Assembly (NCBI GenBank): GCA_017304845.1
Contig: JAFKLL010000017.1
Coordinates: 1-64,000 of the forward strand
Direction of reading: 5' to 3'
Length of the DNA stretch: 64,000 nt
DNA from: Solirubrobacterales bacterium
GTDB taxonomy: Bacteria > Actinomycetota > Thermoleophilia > Solirubrobacterales > 70-9
The notes under the pieces were generated by a model that did not search any database, had not been told where the DNA came from, and saw only the letters and a list, made by a program, of their open reading frames with translations. Both the position numbers and the translations under genes were made by a program. Positions 53,397 to 64,000 of this stretch are shown here, in pieces. The stretch's first letter is position 1, and every line of letters begins with the position of its first letter.

Positions 53397-53470
<74 letters not shown>

Positions 53471-53491
53471 TTCGAGATACAAAGCCAGAAG

Positions 53492-53517
53492 CGCCACCTT
53501 CGCAGGTGGCGTTTTTT
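53492..53517 (+). terminator. Terminator after tRNA-fMet
   Basis: CGCCACCT (53492-53499), TCGC loop, AGGTGGCG (53504-53511), then T6 (53512-53517). Confidence 0.93.
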
Positions 53518-53522
53518 GTGCC

Positions 53523-53542
53523 AGGGCAACGCCTAGGGCAAC
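53523..53542. repeat. Direct repeat AGGGCAAC x2, possible integrase arm sites
   Basis: AGGGCAAC at 53523-53530 and 53535-53542, 12 bases apart, 53 bases from the tRNA end. Short direct repeats at this distance from the core are typical arm-type sites of tyrosine integrases. The remaining DNA to 53735 shows only an inverted repeat CTAGACC/GGTCTAG at 53627-53662 and the ribosome binding site of the next gene. Confidence 0.4.
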
Positions 53543-53735
53543 AGGCGGTTCGCCGTACTTGCTCGTTTGCGAGCCTCAGCAGATACCGCTGCTATAAGTA
53601 GGCCACGCACGCAGAACCGTGCCGAACTAGACCAGTCTGGCATCGTCAGAATTTCGGTCTAGACGTACATACTTTTCCGGGCGTTCTTCGGATTAAGGGT
53701 CGGACAAAAGTGCAGTTCGACCTAAGGAGAAATAG

Positions 53736-53999
53736 ATGAACGTCCAAGAAATCGCATCGTTTGTCGTTGGCAATGATGCTCTGGTCAGCCGGGAGAGGTG
53801 GACCCTCATTGTCCTGGCTGCCCACGCCGATGACGAAGGCTGGATCCAGGTTCCGTACGACGATCTCTGTCAGGCGGTAGGAGTCTCGGGACCGACGTTG
53901 AGGCGATCCATCAAGGAGCTAGAGGCATCCGGTCTAGTCGAGGACTTCGGCACCAAGGGATCGGCCAGGATCAGGCGTCTGACGGTAGGACGAGTCTGA
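53736..53999 (+). CDS. Small winged-helix DNA-binding protein
   Basis: 87 residues. A winged helix fills almost the whole protein: SRERWTLIVLAAHADDEGW, IQVPYDDLCQAVGVSG, PTLRRSIKELEASGLVEDFG. AAGGAG lies six bases before the ATG. Its stop shares one base with the next start (TGATG), so it is made together with the initiator. The likely role is regulation or assistance of replication; an excisionase-like role is also possible. Confidence 0.8.
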   Translation: MNVQEIASFVVGNDALVSRERWTLIVLAAHADDEGWIQVPYDDLCQAVGVSGPTLRRSIKELEASGLVEDFGTKGSARIRRLTVGRV

Positions 54000-54841
54000 T
54001 GGCCGGTGCACTAAAGCGGTTCGAGGTCTACTCGCCGGAAATCTTCATCACCTTGACGAACTGGGTCTGGCATGATGCGCCAGCCTTGGACTCGAAGGCG
54101 AGGGCCGTGTTCCTTGCGCTGGCTGGGAGCTTCAACGCGGACCTCAAGACCCACATCGGGATCGACCGAATGGCGGACCGAACCGGATGGAGTCGCAAAT
54201 CGGTACAACGAGGGCTGGCCAAGCTAGAGGATGCCGGTGTCATCGAGGTCCAGAGGCGCTTTGCCAATTCATCCGAAATCACGCTGGCTGACGAGGTTGC
54301 CTGTTCGGTCAACCTGATTAAAAGGAGAGATAGTCTATTCGGTCAGAGTGACCGAAGCAAGGATGATAAACATTCACATTCAGGTCAACCTGACCGAAAG
54401 GGAGACGACTGTTCGGTCAACCTGACCCCTCCTTTGGGTCAACCTGACCTACAAAATACCGATGTATGTATCTCAGAGTTGAACTCTAATAACAACGTTA
54501 ACAGTGAATCGGCTTTTATGAGTCAGAGTGACCGAAAGGGAGGCGACTCGAAATCCTCAGCCGGATCCGGGAGTGTCTGGGAAGATCTGAGACGGGACCA
54601 GGTTCGACGGGCCGAACGGGCCAAGTCTTCGGAATCCGAGAAACCCTCCGGAGGCATCAGACGGCAGCCAGGTGAATCTCTGCTCGGTGCCAAGCTCCGG
54701 GAAATGGAGTCCGCTCGACCGACTCCGGGATCACCGTTCCCGGACTCGAAGGATGAGGCCGTGGAACCGGAGGGACCAACCCTCAGCCCGTTTGAGCGGG
54801 CTAAGCAGCGACTGGCCGAGGAAGGACGGTCGGTTCGATGA
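53999..54841 (+). CDS. Lambda-O-like replication initiator with embedded origin
   Basis: 280 residues. The N-terminal winged helix (about 1-105) contains RAVFLALAGSF, IDRMADRTGWSRKSVQRGLAK and LEDAGVIEVQRR, the layout of phage O/RepA-type initiators. Residues 105-185 are a low-complexity polar linker. The DNA of this linker holds six iterons and an AT-rich stretch, exactly where oriLambda lies in gene O. The C-terminal 95 residues are charged. The next gene overlaps by ATGA, in the position of lambda P. I infer that the protein binds the repeats in its own gene and starts replication of the element. Confidence 0.75.
   Translation: MAGALKRFEVYSPEIFITLTNWVWHDAPALDSKARAVFLALAGSFNADLKTHIGIDRMADRTGWSRKSVQRGLAKLEDAGVIEVQRRFANSSEITLADEVACSVNLIKRRDSLFGQSDRSKDDKHSHSGQPDRKGDDCSVNLTPPLGQPDLQNTDVCISELNSNNNVNSESAFMSQSDRKGGDSKSSAGSGSVWEDLRRDQVRRAERAKSSESEKPSGGIRRQPGESLLGAKLREMESARPTPGSPFPDSKDEAVEPEGPTLSPFERAKQRLAEEGRSVR
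54307..54533. other. Candidate replication origin: six iterons plus AT-rich segment
   Basis: Consensus GGTCAACCTGACC or GGTCAGAGTGACC (a GGTCA-N3-TGACC dyad, often flanked by TTC and GAA). Copies: 54307-54317 (partial), 54341-54353, 54383-54395, 54415-54427, 54437-54449 and 54521-54533 (first base changed). Between the last two lies a visibly AT-rich 70 bases (54450-54520) with the palindrome AGAGTTGAACTCT, suitable for unwinding. Confidence 0.75.
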
Positions 54842-55236
54842 GTTACACCGGGCCGTCGTACTCGCCGGAATGGAAAGAGCTTCATCAACCTCTGGTCGAT
54901 CTCATGATTGACTCGCTGGTCGAGCTTGGCCTGAAATCTGAGAAGTGGGCCAAGCAGGACCGGCTCTCAGATGAGTGGCACTACGTTGGCGACAAGATCA
55001 CCTTCTACGAAACCGGGATGCCATACGGCTACATGCTTCTCCCGGATGATCCAGCTTGGCGGGAGATCATCCAGCTTGCTATCGGCCGAATGGTCGAGGT
55101 CGGAGCACGGACCATCAAGCCCAATGGACCCGGTTCCGACATCGTTCGTCAGCTTGAGATAGCTCGGGACGATTACCTGGCCACTCAGGAGCCGTCCCCG
55201 GCCTTTATAGAGGCTCAGAGGCGTCGGACGAGGTAA
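54838..55236 (+). CDS. Unknown protein in lambda-P position
   Basis: 132 residues, soluble, Trp- and Pro-containing: YSPEWKELHQPLVDLMIDSL, SDEWHYVGDKITFYETGMPY and a helical EIIQLAIGRMVEVGAR part. Starts with ATGA overlap on the initiator stop. No family recognised. By position it could load the helicase as lambda P does, but it is shorter and shows no P or DnaC motifs, so this is only positional. Confidence 0.65.
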   Translation: MSYTGPSYSPEWKELHQPLVDLMIDSLVELGLKSEKWAKQDRLSDEWHYVGDKITFYETGMPYGYMLLPDDPAWREIIQLAIGRMVEVGARTIKPNGPGSDIVRQLEIARDDYLATQEPSPAFIEAQRRRTR

Positions 55237-55880
55237 GTTCACCATGCGGTCTCAGTGAAAGTCTCTAAGGGCCTCTCAAGGCGTCGAGGTGCGAATGTGT
55301 AAGCGAAAGAAGCGCCATCGGGACAAGCTACTCATGAACGGTAGCTTCGAAGATGAGGCCGAGTCCATCCTAGGGGCGAACAGAAAGACATTTCATAAGA
55401 CTCAGCCTCATAGTGGTTCCCCAAGACCTCAAAACCACTTAGATGAATTCAGGTCCGGAGAGCGCAACGTCTCAGTTCAAGAATATGAATGCCTGTCGAG
55501 CGACAACTGGAATTAAAGAATGGGTCTTGGCTAGGGATAATAGTATGAGCAAGAGACCAAGCATGGAGAGGATGAGGATCCACAAGGCCAAGAAGTGAGC
55601 CTGGAAGGCGGAGAATGCCAAGCGGCAAACTCTTCCCCTACCACCAATCAGACATCGGTTTTAGCTCGTCATGGTTTCACGGCTAACACAAGGGGGGAAG
55701 CATCCGATCTGATAGAGGAGCTTTCTGGAACCAAGAGTAGGGTCACCTCGGACGCTAGGCGTCTCGGTGGGTTCGTTCGATGCTTCTGAATCTCGAAGCC
55801 CACATCTAACCTCACATCTGCCCTTCAACCTCACAGGTCCAACCAGGGTCAATCCCAGTTCCAGAGCTAAAGCATGCAAA

Positions 55881-55925
55881 CGAACCTACCGGAAGTTCAC
55901 AGGGTCAGAAATGTGAACTTGCAGC
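55881..55925. ncRNA. Structured repeat element, copy 1
   Basis: AAGTTCAC (55893-55900) pairs with GTGAACTT (55913-55920) around the 12-base loop AGGGTCAGAAAT. Copy 2 at 56074 has the same loop at 10 of 12 positions and a different but still paired stem. Strand of transcription unknown; could be RNA or a DNA site. Confidence 0.45.
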
Positions 55926-56073
55926 TATCGCCGTCAGCATTGACCCGCGTAGACGACGCTGATCTGGGCCGTGAAGATCGATCCGGCCAACTCGACACCT
56001 TCGACGGTTTGGATACCTGAACTCTACAGGTGCAACTAAAATCAAACACAGTGTCAGAGCCAAAAGTGACGAA

Positions 56074-56118
56074 CGAAGTCTACGGAAGTCTGCAGGGTAG
56101 AAAATGTAGACTTGCCGC
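56074..56118. ncRNA. Structured repeat element, copy 2
   Basis: AAGTCTGC (56086-56093) pairs with GTAGACTT (56106-56113), with one G-T wobble, around the loop AGGGTAGAAAAT. The flanks (CGAA, then TACGG before; GC, then GC after) also match copy 1, and similarity continues about 20 bases upstream (CAGAGC near 55863 and 56055). Confidence 0.45.
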
Positions 56119-56264
56119 GTTCAGCCTGGGTTTCCCCCTTCAAAGGCTTTGTCTTCCCGCGCACGTATAGGGCGTAGTTCGACAGGGACCCGACAAGCTT
56201 CGCGGCGGATGTGGGAAGCAGAAGCGGCGGAGACTTCCGAGCGCAGCCCATTCTCCGAGTACTA

Positions 56265-56528
56265 CTAGCCGACTGCCCCGGTGTCGTCTTCTTGCTCCAA
56301 CAGACCTTCGGCGGTTGAGATGATCCGGGAAGCCTTTACTTCCAATGCGGCTGCGAGCTTCAGGATGCTGCTGTAGCTGAGGTTTCGCCTTCCTCGTTCG
56401 GCTGACGAGACGAAAGTCCTGTCGAGTCCTGCTTCGAGTCCGAGGGCTTCTTGTGAGAGTCCGCGCTCGGTGCGGATCTGTCGTATGGCCCGGCCCAGGG
56501 CTTGGTATTCGGGTACGGGCTGTGCCAT
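56265..56528 (-). CDS. XRE-family regulator
   Basis: 87 residues with a Cro/CI helix-turn-helix: ALGRAIRQIRTERGLSQEAL, GLEAGLDRTFVSSAERGRRN, LSYSSILKLAAAL. It is a single DNA-binding domain with a short tail, typical of element-encoded repressors. Divergent from the 292-residue protein gene with a twin palindrome between them. Probably autoregulated and controlling the small-protein and restriction operon. Confidence 0.92.
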   Translation of the reverse strand: MAQPVPEYQALGRAIRQIRTERGLSQEALGLEAGLDRTFVSSAERGRRNLSYSSILKLAAALEVKASRIISTAEGLLEQEDDTGAVG

Positions 56529-56551
56529 GCCCCGAACCCTTCCGCTCCGTG

Positions 56552-56577
56552 GACTCTGAGTCTACGGACTTTGAGTC
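56552..56577. promoter_or_regulatory. Twin operator for the XRE regulator
   Basis: GACTCTGAGTC (56552-56562, perfect palindrome) and GACTTTGAGTC (56567-56577, one mismatch), 15 bases centre to centre. TATTCT at 56587-56592 is a rightward -10 nine bases before the ATG at 56602, so the operator covers the -35 zone. Confidence 0.65.
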
Positions 56578-56601
56578 ACGTTTTGATATTCTTGGTGTCT
56601 G

Positions 56602-57480
56602 ATGTGGGGGGCTGCACTTGACAAGGAGGAGTTGGCTGCCCGGTCTGAGGCCGGTGCTCAGACCTTGGTGGGGGCAGGCCCTCGTTGTCGATCCATCTTC
56701 GTCCTGCCTGGCGTGGCTTTAGTGCTCTTCGTGCTGCTCCTTGGAGCAGTCAACGCGGATGAGGCGGTTGCCTACGAAACGTGGGACGAGTGTTACTTGA
56801 TCTCGCCTGAGCCGTGGCTATGCGACCCAGCGGATTACCCGACCGACCCTTACCCAGATTGGTCGGAGAACGAGAAGCCTGCGTACATGGGTCAGGACAG
56901 CAACTGGTCTCCCTCACCTGGGGCCGTGATCCAAGGCTACGGGATCGAGTGGGGCGTCCTGGTTCATTTTCGATTCTCATGTAATGCCATCGATGATGAC
57001 CAGTACGACGCCCAGTACCGCCTGAAGATCTTCACACGCTCATCAACATACGAATGGCCGGTAGATGAGTTTAGAAACAACGGGTGTCGGATCCTTTGGG
57101 TCTTCGACAGAAGTGATGTGGGTCGAATCTCTTGGCAGGTTTTCAGAGGTGACACCGCAACCTCGGCAAAGACGAGCTTTCGATTGACGGCGAAACGTAT
57201 GAAGATGAAAGCGAACCTTCTCCGTTCCAATCCGGGTACTGCTTTGAATGAATATCTCTGGTACGGCCTGAATGTGAGAGCGCGAACACGATGTGCTCCA
57301 AGCGCAACACTGTTTGTATATCGATGTGTATCTAGGTGGAGGAAGAAGGGCAAGCCGCGCAGGTGGGTTACCTTCATGAGGAGGCATGGTGCGTTCGATA
57401 GTTGGGATCCGAGTAGCGGACCTTCAGGACCCCTGAATCGCTGGGCTGCTTGGTACAAGCGGAAGCCACGCGGACTCTAG
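56602..57480 (+). CDS. Membrane-anchored or secreted protein of unknown function
   Basis: 292 residues. One hydrophobic segment at about 31-52 (IFVLPGVALVLFVLLLGAVN), then an outer domain with CYLISPEPWLCDPADYP, several Trp/Tyr and Cys, and a basic C-terminal third (TRCAPSATLFVYRCVSRWRK, KGKPRRWVTF). The DPADYP motif recurs in the protein encoded at 59006. Very short or no leader. No family recognised. Base composition is lower in GC than the chromosome. Confidence 0.7.
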   Translation: MWGAALDKEELAARSEAGAQTLVGAGPRCRSIFVLPGVALVLFVLLLGAVNADEAVAYETWDECYLISPEPWLCDPADYPTDPYPDWSENEKPAYMGQDSNWSPSPGAVIQGYGIEWGVLVHFRFSCNAIDDDQYDAQYRLKIFTRSSTYEWPVDEFRNNGCRILWVFDRSDVGRISWQVFRGDTATSAKTSFRLTAKRMKMKANLLRSNPGTALNEYLWYGLNVRARTRCAPSATLFVYRCVSRWRKKGKPRRWVTFMRRHGAFDSWDPSSGPSGPLNRWAAWYKRKPRGL

Positions 57481-57507
57481 ACCTACGGCAAGGAGACCGG
57501 AGAATCT

Positions 57508-57864
57508 ATGAAGAGTGAATGGATCAAGAAACATCCAGTCATCAGCGGAATCGTTGGATTCCTTGCCGCGCTGACGACTGCGCAGGGCATATACGAATGG
57601 GGAATGCCGCTAGGTCTCTTGTCTATCCCAATTCTGCTGGTGGCCTTTTCCCCGTTTATCGCTCTCTTTGCGCTCGCGGCCCTAGCCATTACTGCTGGGC
57701 CAATACGTGGCGGTCCTTCGAACTTGAGTAGTCGCACCGTGGTTTACGCGGATCCGCGTTCTGCGAGAGGTGACGACGATGGATGGGAGACCAATCCTGA
57801 GGACAGACGGATTCCCCCTCGTGCTCCCGGTACCCGTCACACCCATCTGCGGAGCGGACGGTGA
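57508..57864 (+). CDS. Small membrane protein with WETNPExR motif
   Basis: 118 residues: two to three membrane helices in the first 68 residues (GIVGFLAALTTAQGIYEWG, ILLVAFSPFIALFALAALAI) and a polar C-terminal tail ending in GWETNPEDRRIPP. AAGGAGACCGGAG precedes the ATG. The stop overlaps the next start (GTGA), so both are made together. No known family. Confidence 0.7.
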   Translation: MKSEWIKKHPVISGIVGFLAALTTAQGIYEWGMPLGLLSIPILLVAFSPFIALFALAALAITAGPIRGGPSNLSSRTVVYADPRSARGDDDGWETNPEDRRIPPRAPGTRHTHLRSGR

Positions 57865-58166
57865 ACAGGTCGAACCCGCTCTACCAACAGCTAGACCGGA
57901 AGCGGTGTCGGATGGCCTCCGACATGGGGCGGTACGGATCCGAGGACGAAAACTACGACTGGGAGACCAACCCAGAGAACCGCTGGATTCCTCCACTCAC
58001 CCTCGGAAACCAAACCAACCACCCGCTGGCCCGAAACCGTGCACAGAACTATCACGCCGAAGAGGGGCGCCCGAAGCTGATCATCGAAGACTTCCCCATC
58101 TGGCTACGGATCCCTCTAGCCATTGGATTTCTTCTCATGATCATCATCGGCTCACTCGGCAACTGA
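57861..58166 (+). CDS. Small membrane protein with WETNPExR motif, inverted layout
   Basis: 101 residues: polar N-terminus with DWETNPENRWIPP at about 33-45, then EEGRPKLIIEDFPIW and a C-terminal membrane helix (LRIPLAIGFLLMIIIGSL). It shares the motif with the preceding gene, where the order of helix and motif is reversed. GTG start, coupled to the previous gene. Unknown function. Confidence 0.65.
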   Translation: MNRSNPLYQQLDRKRCRMASDMGRYGSEDENYDWETNPENRWIPPLTLGNQTNHPLARNRAQNYHAEEGRPKLIIEDFPIWLRIPLAIGFLLMIIIGSLGN

Positions 58167-58176
58167 ACAGGTTCGG

Positions 58177-58908
58177 ATGGACGATTCGGGCGAAGAGACT
58201 AGACAGAGCTACGTCGTCAAGGGGAACAGGTCGGTAGTCGAAGTCGTCTTTGATCGCAAAGCCGAGACGGGCCAGCGGCCTGTGATCAGGTGCTCGGCAC
58301 CGGACGGCTACGGAGGACTGGCAGGCCAAGCCCAGGGACACGAACACGAAGATCAGGTCTTGTCGTTGGCAGGCTGGATGACCACATCCACGGACGGAGC
58401 CTTCATCGCCGTCCTCGACGCTGCGGTTTGGCCCGGTGGGTTGGTCCTGGTTCAGGCCGACCACGACGGACGAGGCAGCCAGACCTTCTACCAATCAGTT
58501 CACGGCGACTCTCCCGGAGTCTGGCTTGATTTCTATTTCCGGGCGGTTTTCACGGCCATCAAGGCTGCCGACGACACTTTCTCGACGCCTGACCTCGTTC
58601 TCAGGCACCCAACGAACGGATCGTGGAGCCAACCACTCTTCACCCTTTCACTAGAAGCAATCCGGCACCTGGCCGACCAGACAAATCTGAGCGTCGAAAG
58701 GATCCATATTGGCTGCATCCACGGAATCGACACAGATCGAAGCTTCCGCCAAGCCGTTGATCACCTAGAAAATGAGATCGAGAACGGAACCGCCCCGGAG
58801 TTTCGACCGTTCAGGATCGAAGAGCGTGATCTACCGAACGAGGTAGGAAGTCTTTCCGGCGCTCGCCTCTTTCGAATCCCCCTTGGCCGTCAAAGACAAC
58901 CACGATGA
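58177..58908 (+). CDS. Unknown soluble protein
   Basis: 243 residues without membrane segments. Appears beta-rich (RSVVEVVFDRK, DQVLSLAGWMTTSTDGAFIA, GGLVLVQADHD) with a helical C-terminal third (SLEAIRHLADQTNLSVERIH, RQAVDHLENEIENG). No recognised domain. It lies between the small membrane proteins and the DUF1040-like protein with short gaps, so it is probably part of the same operon. Confidence 0.7.
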   Translation: MDDSGEETRQSYVVKGNRSVVEVVFDRKAETGQRPVIRCSAPDGYGGLAGQAQGHEHEDQVLSLAGWMTTSTDGAFIAVLDAAVWPGGLVLVQADHDGRGSQTFYQSVHGDSPGVWLDFYFRAVFTAIKAADDTFSTPDLVLRHPTNGSWSQPLFTLSLEAIRHLADQTNLSVERIHIGCIHGIDTDRSFRQAVDHLENEIENGTAPEFRPFRIEERDLPNEVGSLSGARLFRIPLGRQRQPR

Positions 58909-59005
58909 GGCCGTCAGGTTTCTCTCCCAGACTCGACTCTCACATCACCACCGAGACCTACTTTGGAAAACAAGGTACGCCAGTCCAACACCGATGGAGA
59001 ACAGC

Positions 59006-59536
59006 ATGAGCGACGAGGAAGACGTGAACTGGCGAGATCGAAGCACCTGGACCCGTGATCCCGCCGACTACCCAGACTATCCGTCTCGAAGTGTCAGGAG
59101 TGGATTGAGATGGAGTTCAGCCGGGATCGCCCACCTCAACAATTGGCACAAGTTCTTTGCTGGTCTCCGGGAGAAGCCACCCGAGAAGAGCGGCCTGTTT
59201 CGTCCCGTCGATAAGGATGGCAACCTCTACTTTGGGCAGGCCGAGGACAGTCCAGGCGGAGTAGGCCGTCACGAGAGCAACGACAGCGAGGAAAAGGAGA
59301 CCCAAACGATGTGGGACCAGCCGCGAGATGAATCACGGATTCCTCAAGTGATCGAAGCCCTTGAGGCACGGTGGCAGGAGACGCCCGACCAGCGGCTCGG
59401 CCAATTCTTGATCAATCTTGTGCGTCGGGAACTCGCTCCCGATCCCAACGACGAGGCAAACAGGTTGTTTTCCCTGGAAGACGACAAGCTGCTTGAGATC
59501 TTGGGGAAGCCAACGGGCAGGCCGTCAGCCAGTTGA
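59006..59536 (+). CDS. Protein with DPADYP motif and DUF1040/YihD-like C-terminus
   Basis: 176 residues from the ATG at 59006, chosen because GGAG is six bases before it; an in-frame ATG at 58883 would overlap the previous gene. The N-terminal part has TRDPADYPDYPSRS and WDQPRDESRIP. The last 60 residues (RIPQVIEALEARWQETPDQR, LGQFLINLVRRELAPD, EDDKLLEILGK) resemble the small DUF1040/YihD family. It lies 46 bases before the restriction enzyme gene. Function unknown. Confidence 0.72.
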   Translation: MSDEEDVNWRDRSTWTRDPADYPDYPSRSVRSGLRWSSAGIAHLNNWHKFFAGLREKPPEKSGLFRPVDKDGNLYFGQAEDSPGGVGRHESNDSEEKETQTMWDQPRDESRIPQVIEALEARWQETPDQRLGQFLINLVRRELAPDPNDEANRLFSLEDDKLLEILGKPTGRPSAS

Positions 59537-59582
59537 TCGGGCTGGGGTCCTGGCCTTGACCGAACCGGAATACTTCCCTTCG

Positions 59583-62500
59583 ATGGGAGAGAGCAAGACG
59601 TTCCACGACATTCTCGCTGAGCTAGAGGCTGCGTCCCTCGATACCGCCGAGAAGGGCAACCGTTTCGAGCGGTTGATGCAGGCGTATCTGACCACGGACC
59701 CTGAGTTCGCCCAGATCTATGAGCAGGTGTGGTTGTGGATGGACTATCCGGGCAGGGACGGTCGCCCGGATACGGGGATCGATCTAGTGGCGAAGTCGTG
59801 GGATGGCGAGTTCACTGCGATCCAGTGCAAGTTCTTCGCACCGACCACGACGGTGGACAAGAAGATGATCGATAGCTTCCTCGCGGCGTCTTCGAAGGTG
59901 GAGTTCGATCAGCGGCTGATCATCTCGACCTCGGACAAGTGGGGAAAGAACGCTGAGGCTGCGATTCAGGACCTTCATCCTCCGGTTGCCAGGCTTCGCG
60001 CTCAAGATCTGGCGAACTCTCCGATTGATTGGTCTCAGTTCTCGCTCGACAGGCCCGGCGAGATGGTCAGGGTTGAGCGGCATGGTCCAAGGCCGTATCA
60101 GCAGGCAGCTATCGATGATGTGATCAAAGGGTTCGAAACCAGTGATCGGGGCAAGCTGATCATGGCTTGCGGTACCGGCAAGACGTTCACTTCGCTGAGG
60201 CTGGTGGAGGAGTTTGTTCCTGCCGGTGGATCGGTGCTGTTCCTCGTCCCGTCGATCTCGCTTCTGTCTCAGACGGTCAGGGAGTGGACTGCTCAGGCCC
60301 AGAGGCCGATGCGGTCGTTTGCGGTGTGTTCGGATGTGAAGGTCGGGAAGCGCAAGAAGTCCGATTCCGAGGACATCTCGGTCACCGATCTCGCTTTCCC
60401 CGCTACGACCGATGGAGAGCGCCTGGCACAGAAATTCTTCGAGTTCCCGGACCTGACCGACGAGAACGGTTTCACGGCGGTCTTCTCGACCTACCAGAGC
60501 ATCGGAGCGATCACTGAGGCGCAGAGTCGAAAGCATGGTCACGGGATTCCTGAGTTCGATCTGATCGTCTGCGACGAAGCCCACCGCACCACCGGGGTGA
60601 CCCTTGAGGGTGAGGACGAGTCAGCCTTCGTTCAGGTCCACTCGGACGCGCATGTTGAGGGTAAGAGGCGTCTCTACATGACAGCAACACCGAGGGTTTA
60701 TGGGGATGGTGCGCAGGAGAAGGCGGATCTAGCTAAGGCAATCCTCGTGGACATGAATGATGAGACCCGCTATGGCCCGGAGTTTCACCGCCTGGGATTC
60801 GCCAAAGCGGTGGAGGAGGGGATCCTCACCGACTACAAGGTCCTCGTGCTCGCAGTGGATGAGGGACATGTCTCGCGGCAGTACCAGAGCTTGCTCAAAT
60901 CTGGCGACGGTGAGATTGGTTTAGAGGATGCAGCCAAGCTGATCGGCTGCTGGAACGGACTGGCGAAAAGAGCGAACCCTGAGCACCTGGATGAATTCGC
61001 CACGGACCCGGAGCCAATGAAACGGGCGGTGGCGTTCGCGGGGAACATCAAGAACTCAAAGATGATCGCCAACTCCTTCAACGAAGTCGTTGAAGATGAA
61101 GGCACCGGCACAGCCCCCGAAGGAGAGGCTGACCTCCACGTTCAGGTTCGGCATGTGGACGGAACCCAGAACGTGCTGGTCAGAAACGAAGCTCTCGACT
61201 GGCTCAAAGAAGATCCCGGTGACGGGGAGTGCCGGATCCTCTCCAACGCCCGATGCCTCTCAGAAGGTGTCGATGTCCCGGCACTTGACTCGGTGTTGTT
61301 CCTCGCTCCCCGTAAGAGTCAGGTTGATGTGGTCCAGTCGGTTGGCCGGGTGATGCGGAAGCTCGAAGGCAAGAAGTACGGGTACGTGATCCTCCCAATA
61401 GCCGTACCTGCCGATCAGAAGCCCGAGGACGCTCTTTCCAACAATGAGAAGTACCGAGTGGTCTGGCAGGTCCTGCAAGCCCTTAGATCGCACGACGAAC
61501 GGTTGAACGCGGTGATCAACAAGTTAGACCTCACCGGCCACACTGAACAAACCAAGATCTCCGTGATCGGTGTCGGCGGAGGCGAAGACGAAGAAGATCG
61601 GGGAAGCAAGACCGCTGGGACCGGGGAGCAGTTGGTGATGAGCTTCCCCAACATCGATGACTGGCGAGACTCAATCTTCGCCCGGATCGTCAAACAAGTC
61701 GGGGACCGTCGCTACTGGGAAACCTGGGCGAAAGACATCGCAGACATCGCCGCCAGGTACGTCACCCGAATCACCGCACTCATCGAAGGCGACGACAAGA
61801 AGATCCGCGATGAGTTCGAGATCTTCCTGAAGGGCTTGCAAGACAACCTCAACCCGCAGGTCGATGAGAAGCAGGCCGTGGAGATGCTGGCCCAGCACCT
61901 CATCACCCGACCCGTCTTCGACGCCCTCTTCGACGGGTACTCGTTCTCGGATGAGAACCCAGTGTCGATCTCGATGCAGAGGATGCTCGACCTGCTTGAT
62001 CTCGAACGGCTCGACAAGGAAACCACCGACGAACTCGACTCCTTCTACAAGTCGGTTCGCCTCCGAGCCGAAGGCATCTCCGACCCGGCAGCCAAGCAGG
62101 AGATCGTCAAGGACCTCTACGAAACGTTTTTCCGTACGGCCTTCAAGGACATGGCCGACCGACTGGGGATCGTCTATACGCCGGTCCAAATCGTGGACTT
62201 CATCCTCAACAGCGCCGACCAGGCCCTCAAAGAGCACTTCGGCAAAGGCATCACCGACGAAGGCGTCCATGTACTCGACCCGTTCACGGGAACCGGCACC
62301 TTCATCGTCCGGCTCATCCAATCCGGCTTGATCAAACCCGAAGACCTCGAACGAAAGTTCCGGTACGAACTCCACGCCAACGAAATCGTCCTGCTCGCCT
62401 ACTACGTCGCAGCGATCAACATCGAAGAAGCCTTCCATGGCCAGCAAGGTGGCGGCTACCAACCCTTCGACGGCATCGTCCTAACCGACACGTTCCAGAT

Positions 62501-64000
62501 GCACGAGGACGACGACAAAGATGAGCTTCCCGGCATGGAACGCTTCCCCGAAAACAACGAGCGGGTCAAGCGCCAGAAAGAGCTTCCGATCCGGGTAATA
62601 GTTGGCAACCCCCCCTACTCGGTTGCGAAGGGCACCTCATATCCAACGTTGACAGAGAGGATCAAGGGAACCTACGCGGCTGAATCGAGCGCAACGCTGA
62701 AGAAGTCTCTTGATGATTCGTACATCCAGTCTGTCAGGTGGGCTTCGGATCGCATCGGTGATCGAGGGATCATCTGCTTTGTTTCCAACGGCGGCTACCT
62801 GGACGGCAACGCTGCAGATGGCCTGCGTAAGCACCTGACCAAAGAGTTCAGCCAGATCTCGGTCTTCAATTTGAGGGGAAACCAAAGAACTGCTGGGGAA
62901 CAGTCTCGGAAGGAAGGGGGCAAGATCTTCGGATCTGGCAGCCGTGCGACTATCGCCATCACCCTCTTGGTCAAGGATCCCGACTCGCCCAGCAAGGGAA
63001 AGGTCCTCTACCGAGACATAGGTGACTACCTCACCCGCGACGAGAAACTAGCCATCGTGTCCGAACACGGTGACTTCGATCACCTCGATCTCACCGAGAT
63101 CGTTCCGAACGATGAAGGCGACTGGCTGAACCAACGAGATCCCGCGTTCGACGCCTACCCACCCATCGGTGCCAAAAACGGAGGTGCCGAGGACGGATTG
63201 AGAGTGTTCCGAACCTACTCGGCAGGGTTGAAGACCAACCGAGACCTCTGGGCATACGGAAGCTCCGGTGCCCAAGTGGAGAATCAAATGCGACGCTTGG
63301 TGTCCACCTACACCGAAGCTGTCGAGAGTATTCGGAATGAGCTTCCGATGTCTGTAGATGACCTCCGGTCAGCGGTCACCCAAGACCCAACAGAAATCAA
63401 ATGGGACGGAACGCTCGAAGATGAAGCCCGAAAAGCCGTCCCAATCAACTTCGAGGCGGAAGCCATTCGGACAAGCTGCTACCGCCCGTTCTTCAAGCAG
63501 AAGGTCTACTTCAACCGCAAGCTCAACAACAGCGTCTACAAGCTGCCAGAGCTTTTCCCGACGCCCGAACAGGAGAACTACGGCTTCTACCTGAACGGCA
63601 TCCATGCAACGTCCGAGTTCGCTGCTCTGATGGTTGACGAAATTCCGTGTCTTGATCTATTCGGTAAAGGAGGCCAGTTCTTCCCGCGCTACACCTACGT
63701 CGAGCGCGGCAAGGCCGACAACCTTCTCGACGCAGTCGAAGACGATGGGTCTCCGTACCGCCGCGTAGACAACATCACCGACGAGATCCTGGCCGATTAC
63801 CAGGCTGCGTACGGCGGAGAGGTCACGAAGGACGACATCTTTTTCTACGCCTACGGCCTCCTCCACAGCCCCGACTACCGGGAACGCTTCCAGGCAGACC
63901 TTAAGAAGATGCTGCCCCGAATCCCCAAGGTTGCGCGGTTCGAGGATTTCGAGGAGTTCACTGAAGCAGGTCGCAGACTCTCGGATCTTCACATTGGCTA
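59583..64000 (+). CDS. Type ISP restriction-modification enzyme (C-terminus outside window)
   Basis: 1472 residues visible and still open; relatives such as LlaGI and LlaBIII have about 1570. One chain holds everything. An Mrr-like nuclease (D67 in TGIDLVA, Q81 and K83 in IQCKFF) is followed by an SF2 helicase with Walker A ACGTGKT (195-201), DEAH (331-334), MTATP (366-370) and QSVGRVMRK (585-593). Next are a helical coupler, an N6-adenine methyltransferase with DPFTGTGTF (899-907) and NPPY (1009-1012), and part of the target-recognition region. It protects against phage DNA: the enzyme methylates one strand of its site, translocates and cuts between converging complexes. The ATG at 59583 gives the expected FHDILAE start; TTG at 59556 is an alternative. 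Confidence 0.92.
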   Translation, partial: MGESKTFHDILAELEAASLDTAEKGNRFERLMQAYLTTDPEFAQIYEQVWLWMDYPGRDGRPDTGIDLVAKSWDGEFTAIQCKFFAPTTTVDKKMIDSFLAASSKVEFDQRLIISTSDKWGKNAEAAIQDLHPPVARLRAQDLANSPIDWSQFSLDRPGEMVRVERHGPRPYQQAAIDDVIKGFETSDRGKLIMACGTGKTFTSLRLVEEFVPAGGSVLFLVPSISLLSQTVREWTAQAQRPMRSFAVCSDVKVGKRKKSDSEDISVTDLAFPATTDGERLAQKFFEFPDLTDENGFTAVFSTYQSIGAITEAQSRKHGHGIPEFDLIVCDEAHRTTGVTLEGEDESAFVQVHSDAHVEGKRRLYMTATPRVYGDGAQEKADLAKAILVDMNDETRYGPEFHRLGFAKAVEEGILTDYKVLVLAVDEGHVSRQYQSLLKSGDGEIGLEDAAKLIGCWNGLAKRANPEHLDEFATDPEPMKRAVAFAGNIKNSKMIANSFNEVVEDEGTGTAPEGEADLHVQVRHVDGTQNVLVRNEALDWLKEDPGDGECRILSNARCLSEGVDVPALDSVLFLAPRKSQVDVVQSVGRVMRKLEGKKYGYVILPIAVPADQKPEDALSNNEKYRVVWQVLQALRSHDERLNAVINKLDLTGHTEQTKISVIGVGGGEDEEDRGSKTAGTGEQLVMSFPNIDDWRDSIFARIVKQVGDRRYWETWAKDIADIAARYVTRITALIEGDDKKIRDEFEIFLKGLQDNLNPQVDEKQAVEMLAQHLITRPVFDALFDGYSFSDENPVSISMQRMLDLLDLERLDKETTDELDSFYKSVRLRAEGISDPAAKQEIVKDLYETFFRTAFKDMADRLGIVYTPVQIVDFILNSADQALKEHFGKGITDEGVHVLDPFTGTGTFIVRLIQSGLIKPEDLERKFRYELHANEIVLLAYYVAAINIEEAFHGQQGGGYQPFDGIVLTDTFQMHEDDDKDELPGMERFPENNERVKRQKELPIRVIVGNPPYSVAKGTSYPTLTERIKGTYAAESSATLKKSLDDSYIQSVRWASDRIGDRGIICFVSNGGYLDGNAADGLRKHLTKEFSQISVFNLRGNQRTAGEQSRKEGGKIFGSGSRATIAITLLVKDPDSPSKGKVLYRDIGDYLTRDEKLAIVSEHGDFDHLDLTEIVPNDEGDWLNQRDPAFDAYPPIGAKNGGAEDGLRVFRTYSAGLKTNRDLWAYGSSGAQVENQMRRLVSTYTEAVESIRNELPMSVDDLRSAVTQDPTEIKWDGTLEDEARKAVPINFEAEAIRTSCYRPFFKQKVYFNRKLNNSVYKLPELFPTPEQENYGFYLNGIHATSEFAALMVDEIPCLDLFGKGGQFFPRYTYVERGKADNLLDAVEDDGSPYRRVDNITDEILADYQAAYGGEVTKDDIFFYAYGLLHSPDYRERFQADLKKMLPRIPKVARFEDFEEFTEAGRRLSDLHIG

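What the first reader, a model, noticed from the sequence alone, without database searches (positions are those of the whole stretch)
53999..54841. A lambda-type replication origin embedded in its own initiator gene, on an actinobacterial element
Six copies of a GGTCA-N3-TGACC dyad lie inside a 280-codon gene for a winged-helix protein, all within the low-complexity linker. An AT-rich 70-base segment with its own palindrome sits between copies 5 and 6, and a small gene overlaps the stop. This matches the logic of lambda O: iterons and unwinding region inside the gene, with P next. The initiator itself has no obvious sequence relation to O, so the layout may be convergent or a distant relative.
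Basis: partly seen in the sequence, partly recalled or inferred. Interest (0 to 1): 0.85.

Follow-up and report, generated by a model that had tools for sequence, protein, structure and literature searches.

The report
Replication origin inside its initiator gene
A mobile element inserted next to a tRNA gene carries a phage-type replication starter protein whose gene also holds, in its middle, the DNA sites where that protein very probably starts copying the element; the same sites, and the protein residue that goes with them, recur in phages of many unrelated bacteria.

Summary
ORF 53999-54841 has a confidently predicted winged helix (pLDDT 89). Its linker DNA carries six GGTCA-N3-TGACC dyads: four exact, one with one mismatch, one with two. 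Both reading phases that avoid a stop codon are used; 0 of 2000 synonymous-codon shuffles reach four exact copies. The lowest-GC 68 bases of the whole 18.8-kb element lie between dyads 5 and 6. The element is integrated at tRNA-Met (45-bp direct repeat, tyrosine integrase at the far end).

The protein is not unrelated to O: it matches phage initiator and O-like profiles (E 1e-9 to 1e-8). A blind search for paired GGTCA dyads in viral contigs landed in winged-helix initiator genes, near codon 110, in 82 of 120 contigs; a permuted control dyad did so in 0 of 15. A second dyad (GCAGA-N1-TCTGC) behaves alike. The recognition helix separates the two classes: residue 71 is Arg in 43/43 versus 0/43 non-redundant genes; residue 67 is Arg in 43/43 of the second class. 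This is strong indirect evidence that each initiator binds the dyads in its own gene.

Not supported: a P-like gene next door. Host lineage not established. Origin activity is inferred, not shown.

The parts
53397..53470 (+). tRNA-Met (CAT), integration target
   Evidence: ARAGORN; Rfam
53429..53473 (.). attL: 45-bp exact direct repeat of the tRNA 3' end; the other copy (attR) is at contig 72225-72269, outside the window (L002:8225-8269)
53474..53735 (.). non-coding leader before the replication cassette; holds no GGTCA/TGACC half-site
53736..53999 (+). 87-aa stand-alone winged-helix protein, same profile families as the initiator (phrog_270, E 7e-9); possible co-factor or competitor
53999..54841 (+). 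rep: 280-aa O-like replication initiator gene containing the putative origin
   Evidence: PHROGs; fold
54047..54289 (+). winged-helix domain, residues about 17-97
   Evidence: AlphaFold2
54194..54232 (+). recognition helix, residues 66-78 (Arg71 codon 54209-54211)
54307..54319 (.). iteron 1, GGTCAACCTGATT (two mismatches)
54341..54353 (.). iteron 2, GGTCAGAGTGACC (perfect 19-bp palindrome with flanks)
54383..54395 (.). iteron 3, GGTCAACCTGACC
54415..54427 (.). iteron 4, GGTCAACCTGACC (other codon phase)
54437..54449 (.). iteron 5, GGTCAACCTGACC
54450..54518 (.). AT-rich tract, putative unwinding element; lowest-GC 68-mer of the element; palindrome AGAGTTGAACTCT 54475-54487
54521..54533 (.). 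iteron 6, AGTCAGAGTGACC (one mismatch)
54838..55236 (+). 132-aa ORF overlapping the rep stop; function unknown, not recognisably P- or loader-like
53429..64000 (.). part of the integrated element inside the window (runs to contig 72269; tyrosine integrase at contig 70737-72161)

Best explanation
The gene encodes a phage-type (O-like) winged-helix replication initiator, and its linker DNA is the replication origin of an 18.8-kb integrative element. After excision as a circle, dimers of the N-terminal winged helix bind the six dyads (Arg71 in the recognition helix contacting the GGTCA half-sites), wrap the region and open the adjacent AT-rich tract; the C-terminal part or a partner then brings in the host replicative helicase. 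Shown: layout, statistics, family relation, predicted fold, and the covariation between recognition helix and dyad sequence in relatives. Inferred: binding in this case, unwinding, helicase recruitment, and that the excised element replicates.
For: Dyads beyond chance and in two codon phases. AT-rich minimum of the element inside the dyad block. Profile matches to replication initiation and O-like families, E 1.6e-9 to 1.2e-8. Winged helix, pLDDT 89.3, with structural neighbours among phage HTH/initiator proteins including a phage O protein. In 44 non-redundant genes the first dyad lies at codon 110 (median), and the AT minimum is downstream rather than upstream in 33. Dyads occupy both phases in 60 of 98 genes. 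Recognition-helix residue 71 is Arg in 43/43 GGTCA genes and 0/43 GCAGA genes, with a profile masked at that position; the class changes at least 4 times on supported branches (18 on the best tree) and Arg71 follows in all counted pairs. No half-site lies in the leader where an operator would be.
Against: No experiment. No homologue closer than about 35% identity. Arg71 is not sufficient: about nine Arg71-bearing relatives found without using the motif have no GGTCA dyads, and 14 of 18 motif-blind relatives lack three or more recurrent in-gene dyads. The neighbouring gene is not recognisably a loader, and the genes scanned in the element include no helicase of the DnaB type or DnaC. The C-terminal third of the protein matches nothing.
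Confidence: 0.85

Rival explanations
1. The protein is a transcription regulator and the dyads are its operators: binding inside its own gene represses the cassette by roadblock.
For: Winged-helix regulators (CodY, ArsR/MarR types) are the nearest solved folds; dyads are typical operators; a second winged-helix gene lies upstream.
Against: Profile hits are to replication families, not regulators; no half-site in the leader; six sites plus the AT-rich minimum, about 110 codons into the gene, is the recurrent initiator layout. Autoregulation as a side effect is compatible with the origin model.
Confidence: 0.07
2. The dyads are a centromere bound by a TubR-like winged helix for partition, not an origin.
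For: TubR is among the structural neighbours; partition sites are also repeated dyads.
Against: No TubZ or ParA/ParM-like partner among the element genes scanned; partition sites usually lie outside the gene; families matched are initiators.
Confidence: 0.02
3. Decayed relic: a former phage or plasmid initiator with its origin, kept in an element that now spreads only by integration.
For: Two of six dyads are imperfect; no helicase or recognisable loader; sparse distribution (no relative in 49 family genomes).
Against: Open reading frame intact, four dyads exact, AT tract and phase use intact; integrase and 45-bp att repeats intact.
Confidence: 0.06

Closest known systems
Phage lambda O / ori-lambda (and Stx-phage O)
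   Same: Initiator gene with dyad iterons and an AT-rich tract in its middle (PMC7466680; PMC6022878; lambda record); in Stx phages six iterons, as here; shared O-like profiles.
   Different: Iteron sequence and half-site spacing differ; lambda O itself is not found by the winged-helix profile built here; here the AT tract lies between dyads 5 and 6; no P gene.
SPP1 G38P-oriL-G39P-G40P (replisome organiser)
   Same: Origin repeats and AT-rich region inside the initiator gene (PMC6316719); small gene behind the initiator.
   Different: Next gene is not recognisably a G39P-like loader and no DnaB-type helicase follows.
Staphylococcal phage DnaD-like initiator cassette (e.g. phages 96, 42E, P954)
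   Same: Same family level (phrog_428/678/270), the GGTCA dyad type in close relatives, same position, Arg at the recognition-helix site.
   Different: Those are followed by a 118-aa helicase loader and DnaB; protein identity under 25%.
Streptomyces phage TurkishDelight gp71 and Microbacterium phage DelaGarza gp45
   Same: Actinophage winged-helix genes of the same families with in-gene dyads; DelaGarza has two GGTCA-type dyads.
   Different: TurkishDelight dyads are GTCACG-type with an 11-nt spacer; both are lytic-phage genes annotated only as HTH proteins.

Membership tests
Phage O-like / replication-initiation family (PHROG) | Significant match to the family profiles | tested here: met
   phrog_1032 1.6e-9, phrog_270 3.5e-9, phrog_678 1.2e-8, phrog_391 3.5e-6
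Phage O-like / replication-initiation family (PHROG) | N-terminal winged helix | tested here: met
   AlphaFold2 pLDDT 89.3; viral structural neighbours
Lambda-type in-gene origin | Several dyad iterons inside the initiator gene, beyond chance | tested here: met
Lambda-type in-gene origin | AT-rich tract next to the iterons | tested here: met
   lowest-GC 68-mer of the element at 54450; same order in 33 of 44 relatives
Lambda-type in-gene origin | Initiator binds the iterons | tested here: inconclusive
   No binding assay; recognition-helix/dyad covariation in relatives supports it indirectly
Lambda-type in-gene origin | Region supports autonomous replication | not testable with these tools
   needs an experiment
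Lambda O-P module | Helicase-loader gene (P, G39P-like or DnaC-like) directly downstream | tested here: not met
   132-aa ORF: no family, no fold match with a weak model, no similarity to the DelaGarza loader
Integrative element | Integrase plus direct repeats at a tRNA gene | tested here: met
   45-bp repeat and tyrosine integrase

The most novel reading that the evidence does not exclude
Winged-helix phage initiators across phyla follow a simple recognition code: Arg at helix position 71 goes with GGTCA-N3-TGACC dyads, Arg at 67 with a non-Arg 71 goes with GCAGA-N1-TCTGC dyads, and the dyads sit inside the initiator's own gene. The origin and its iteron class could then be read from the gene for very many phages and elements, of which this element is one; the class has switched repeatedly, with helix and in-gene DNA changing together.
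Probability: 0.65. Interest if true: 0.8.

Novelty: new member of a known kind. Interest (0 to 1): 0.6.

Why it matters
The object itself extends the lambda/SPP1 way of hiding an origin in the initiator gene to a small tRNA-borne element that carries a restriction system and no phage structural genes that were recognised. What makes it worth attention is the comparison it opened: the same dyad marks initiator genes in staphylococcal, enterobacterial, actinobacterial and uncultured phages, and a single helix position separates two dyad classes without exception in 86 non-redundant genes. That turns many genes annotated only as 'helix-turn-helix protein' into predicted initiators with a mapped origin, and predicts which residue swap should change iteron choice. 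A search of the held paper library found no description of this code, though the library lacks most subscription journals.

Tried and rejected
Close homologues by tblastn or pattern search in viral contigs, genome contigs and plasmids: none; hits in related genomes (L003, L004) were chance matches to unrelated genes. Relatives of the 132-aa protein: none; its fold model is weak (pLDDT 68.5) and matched nothing. The 87-aa gene as a recent duplicate of the rep domain: no BLAST similarity, only shared profiles. An alignment-based locus search failed for lack of conserved stretches. Solved-structure sequence search gave only generic winged-helix regulators. WhiB as an actinobacterial marker: not found. 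DnaB N-domain not found in the 75%-complete assembly, so nothing can be said about the host helicase; DciA is present. No sigma-70-type promoter pattern before the cassette.

Full report
Observation. ORF 53999-54841 encodes 280 residues. Six dyads of the form GGTCA-N3-TGACC start at 54307, 54341, 54383, 54415, 54437 and 54521; the four in the middle are exact, the first has two mismatches and the last one. The whole 64-kb window has no other exact copy. Shuffling synonymous codons of this gene 2000 times never gave four exact dyads (mean 0.19, maximum 2). In the 2.49-Mb assembly a pair of such dyads occurs only here. The copies lie in two codon phases, so the encoded peptides differ (GQPD, SVNLT) while the DNA is the same; the third phase would read TGA as a stop. 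Between dyads 5 and 6 lies the lowest-GC 68-mer of the whole element (GC 0.34 against 0.57), with the palindrome AGAGTTGAACTCT.

Setting. The cassette starts 262 bases inside an integrated element. A 45-bp exact repeat of the tRNA-Met 3' end lies at 53429-53473 and at contig position 72225-72269, which makes the element about 18.8 kb. A tyrosine integrase lies just inside the far repeat. Other genes: an 87-aa winged-helix protein directly before rep, a Cro-type regulator, a Type ISP restriction-modification enzyme, an HTH/IrrE-like regulator, a serine resolvase. No phage structural, conjugation, DnaB-type helicase or DnaC gene was recognised among the ORFs scanned.

What the protein is. Pfam gives only generic winged-helix hits. 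PHROGs gives replication initiation families: phrog_1032 1.6e-9, phrog_270 3.5e-9, phrog_678 (O-like) 1.2e-8, phrog_186 (DnaD-like) 8.8e-8. Lambda O matches phrog_678 over an overlapping stretch of the profile. AlphaFold2 on an alignment of 32 sequences gives a winged helix with pLDDT 89.3 and the recognition helix at residues 66-78. Structural neighbours among viral models include phage HTH/initiator proteins, TurkishDelight gp71 and a phage replication protein O. The two best BLAST relatives, TurkishDelight gp71 and a Vibrio phage gene, both have recurrent dyads in the same part of the gene, but with other sequences.

Blind test with the DNA motif. I scanned viral contigs for two GGTCA-N3-TGACC dyads 5-35 bases apart. 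A permuted dyad of the same composition and spacing, GCTGA-N3-TCAGC, gave 15 contigs in a complete scan. A winged-helix initiator ORF covers the dyad pair in 82 of 120 viral contigs, 16 of 115 genome contigs and 0 of 15 controls. Of 74 non-redundant covering ORFs (the window's own included) 48 match phrog_270; none of 11 control ORFs matches a replication family. In 44 non-redundant genes the first dyad starts at codon 110 (median; quartiles 98 and 127), and the AT-richest 50 bases lie downstream rather than upstream of the dyads in 33. The genes behind these initiators are often DnaB, DnaC-like or small helicase loaders.

The recognition code. In a motif-blind set of O-like relatives from the same phylum other dyads appear; one gene from the same order has five GCAGA-N1-TCTGC dyads, the same half-site as in the Vibrio phage gene, and both lack Arg at position 71. 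I therefore scanned viral contigs for GCAGA-N1-TCTGC pairs. With a profile masked at position 71, the aligned recognition helices divide completely: Arg71 in 43 of 43 non-redundant GGTCA genes and in 0 of 43 GCAGA genes; Arg67 in 43 of 43 GCAGA genes and in 6 of 43 GGTCA genes. On a tree built without the recognition helix the class changes at least four times on supported branches (18 on the best tree, which is poorly resolved), and Arg71 goes with it in every counted pair. The window protein (Lys67, Arg71) falls in the GGTCA class although its best match outside the helix is a GCAGA-class gene (33% identity). The simplest reading is that each initiator binds the dyads in its own gene.

Limits of the code. 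Arg71 is not sufficient: about nine Arg71 relatives found without the motif have no GGTCA dyads. Only 4 of 18 motif-blind relatives have three or more recurrent perfect dyads in the gene, where 100 shuffles of each give none; many may have degenerate iterons or origins elsewhere. Both motif scans were capped, so counts are lower bounds, and non-redundancy at 60% identity does not remove all kinship.

Mechanism. Most likely the excised circle replicates from this block: Rep dimers on the dyads, opening of the AT tract, then helicase delivery. The last step is open. The 132-aa neighbour stands where loaders stand in related cassettes, but shows no AAA+ motif, no family, no similarity to a loader and no fold match. 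The host has DciA. An operator role is less likely, since the leader before the cassette holds no half-site.

Comparison. An origin inside the initiator gene is known from lambda and Stx phages (PMC7466680, PMC6022878) and SPP1 (PMC6316719); for mycobacterial prophages with RepA it was only suspected, without iterons found (PMC7157519). The object is therefore a new member of a known kind. The helix/dyad code was not found in the papers searched.

Noticed in passing
53736-53999: An 87-aa stand-alone winged-helix protein of the same profile families overlaps the rep start by one base; it could compete with or assist Rep at the dyads.
   Followed up: partly
59418-64000 and on into L002:1-382: A Type ISP restriction-modification enzyme (Mrr nuclease, helicase, N6-methylase, specificity domain) is the main cargo of the element.
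   Followed up: partly
L002:1176-2534 (contig 65176-66534): HTH plus IrrE-like peptidase fused to DUF2188; matches the RmrA/PDC-S16 models of PADLOC and holds the only other exact GGTCA-N3-TGACC dyad of the element (contig 66054).
   Followed up: no
L002:8420-14374 (contig 72420-78374): Directly beyond attR lie an OLD/AriA-like ATPase, an integrase fragment and a large methylase-type gene: apparently a second, neighbouring defence-type insertion.
   Followed up: no
L281 (same order as the host): O-like initiator gene with five GCAGA-N1-TCTGC dyads: same layout, other iteron class.
   Followed up: yes
[quoted passage not shown] DelaGarza gp45 and TurkishDelight gp71 have in-gene dyads.
   Followed up: partly
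53492-53525: A hairpin followed by a run of T lies just inside the element behind tRNA-Met, so the element seems to supply the tRNA gene's terminator.
   Followed up: no
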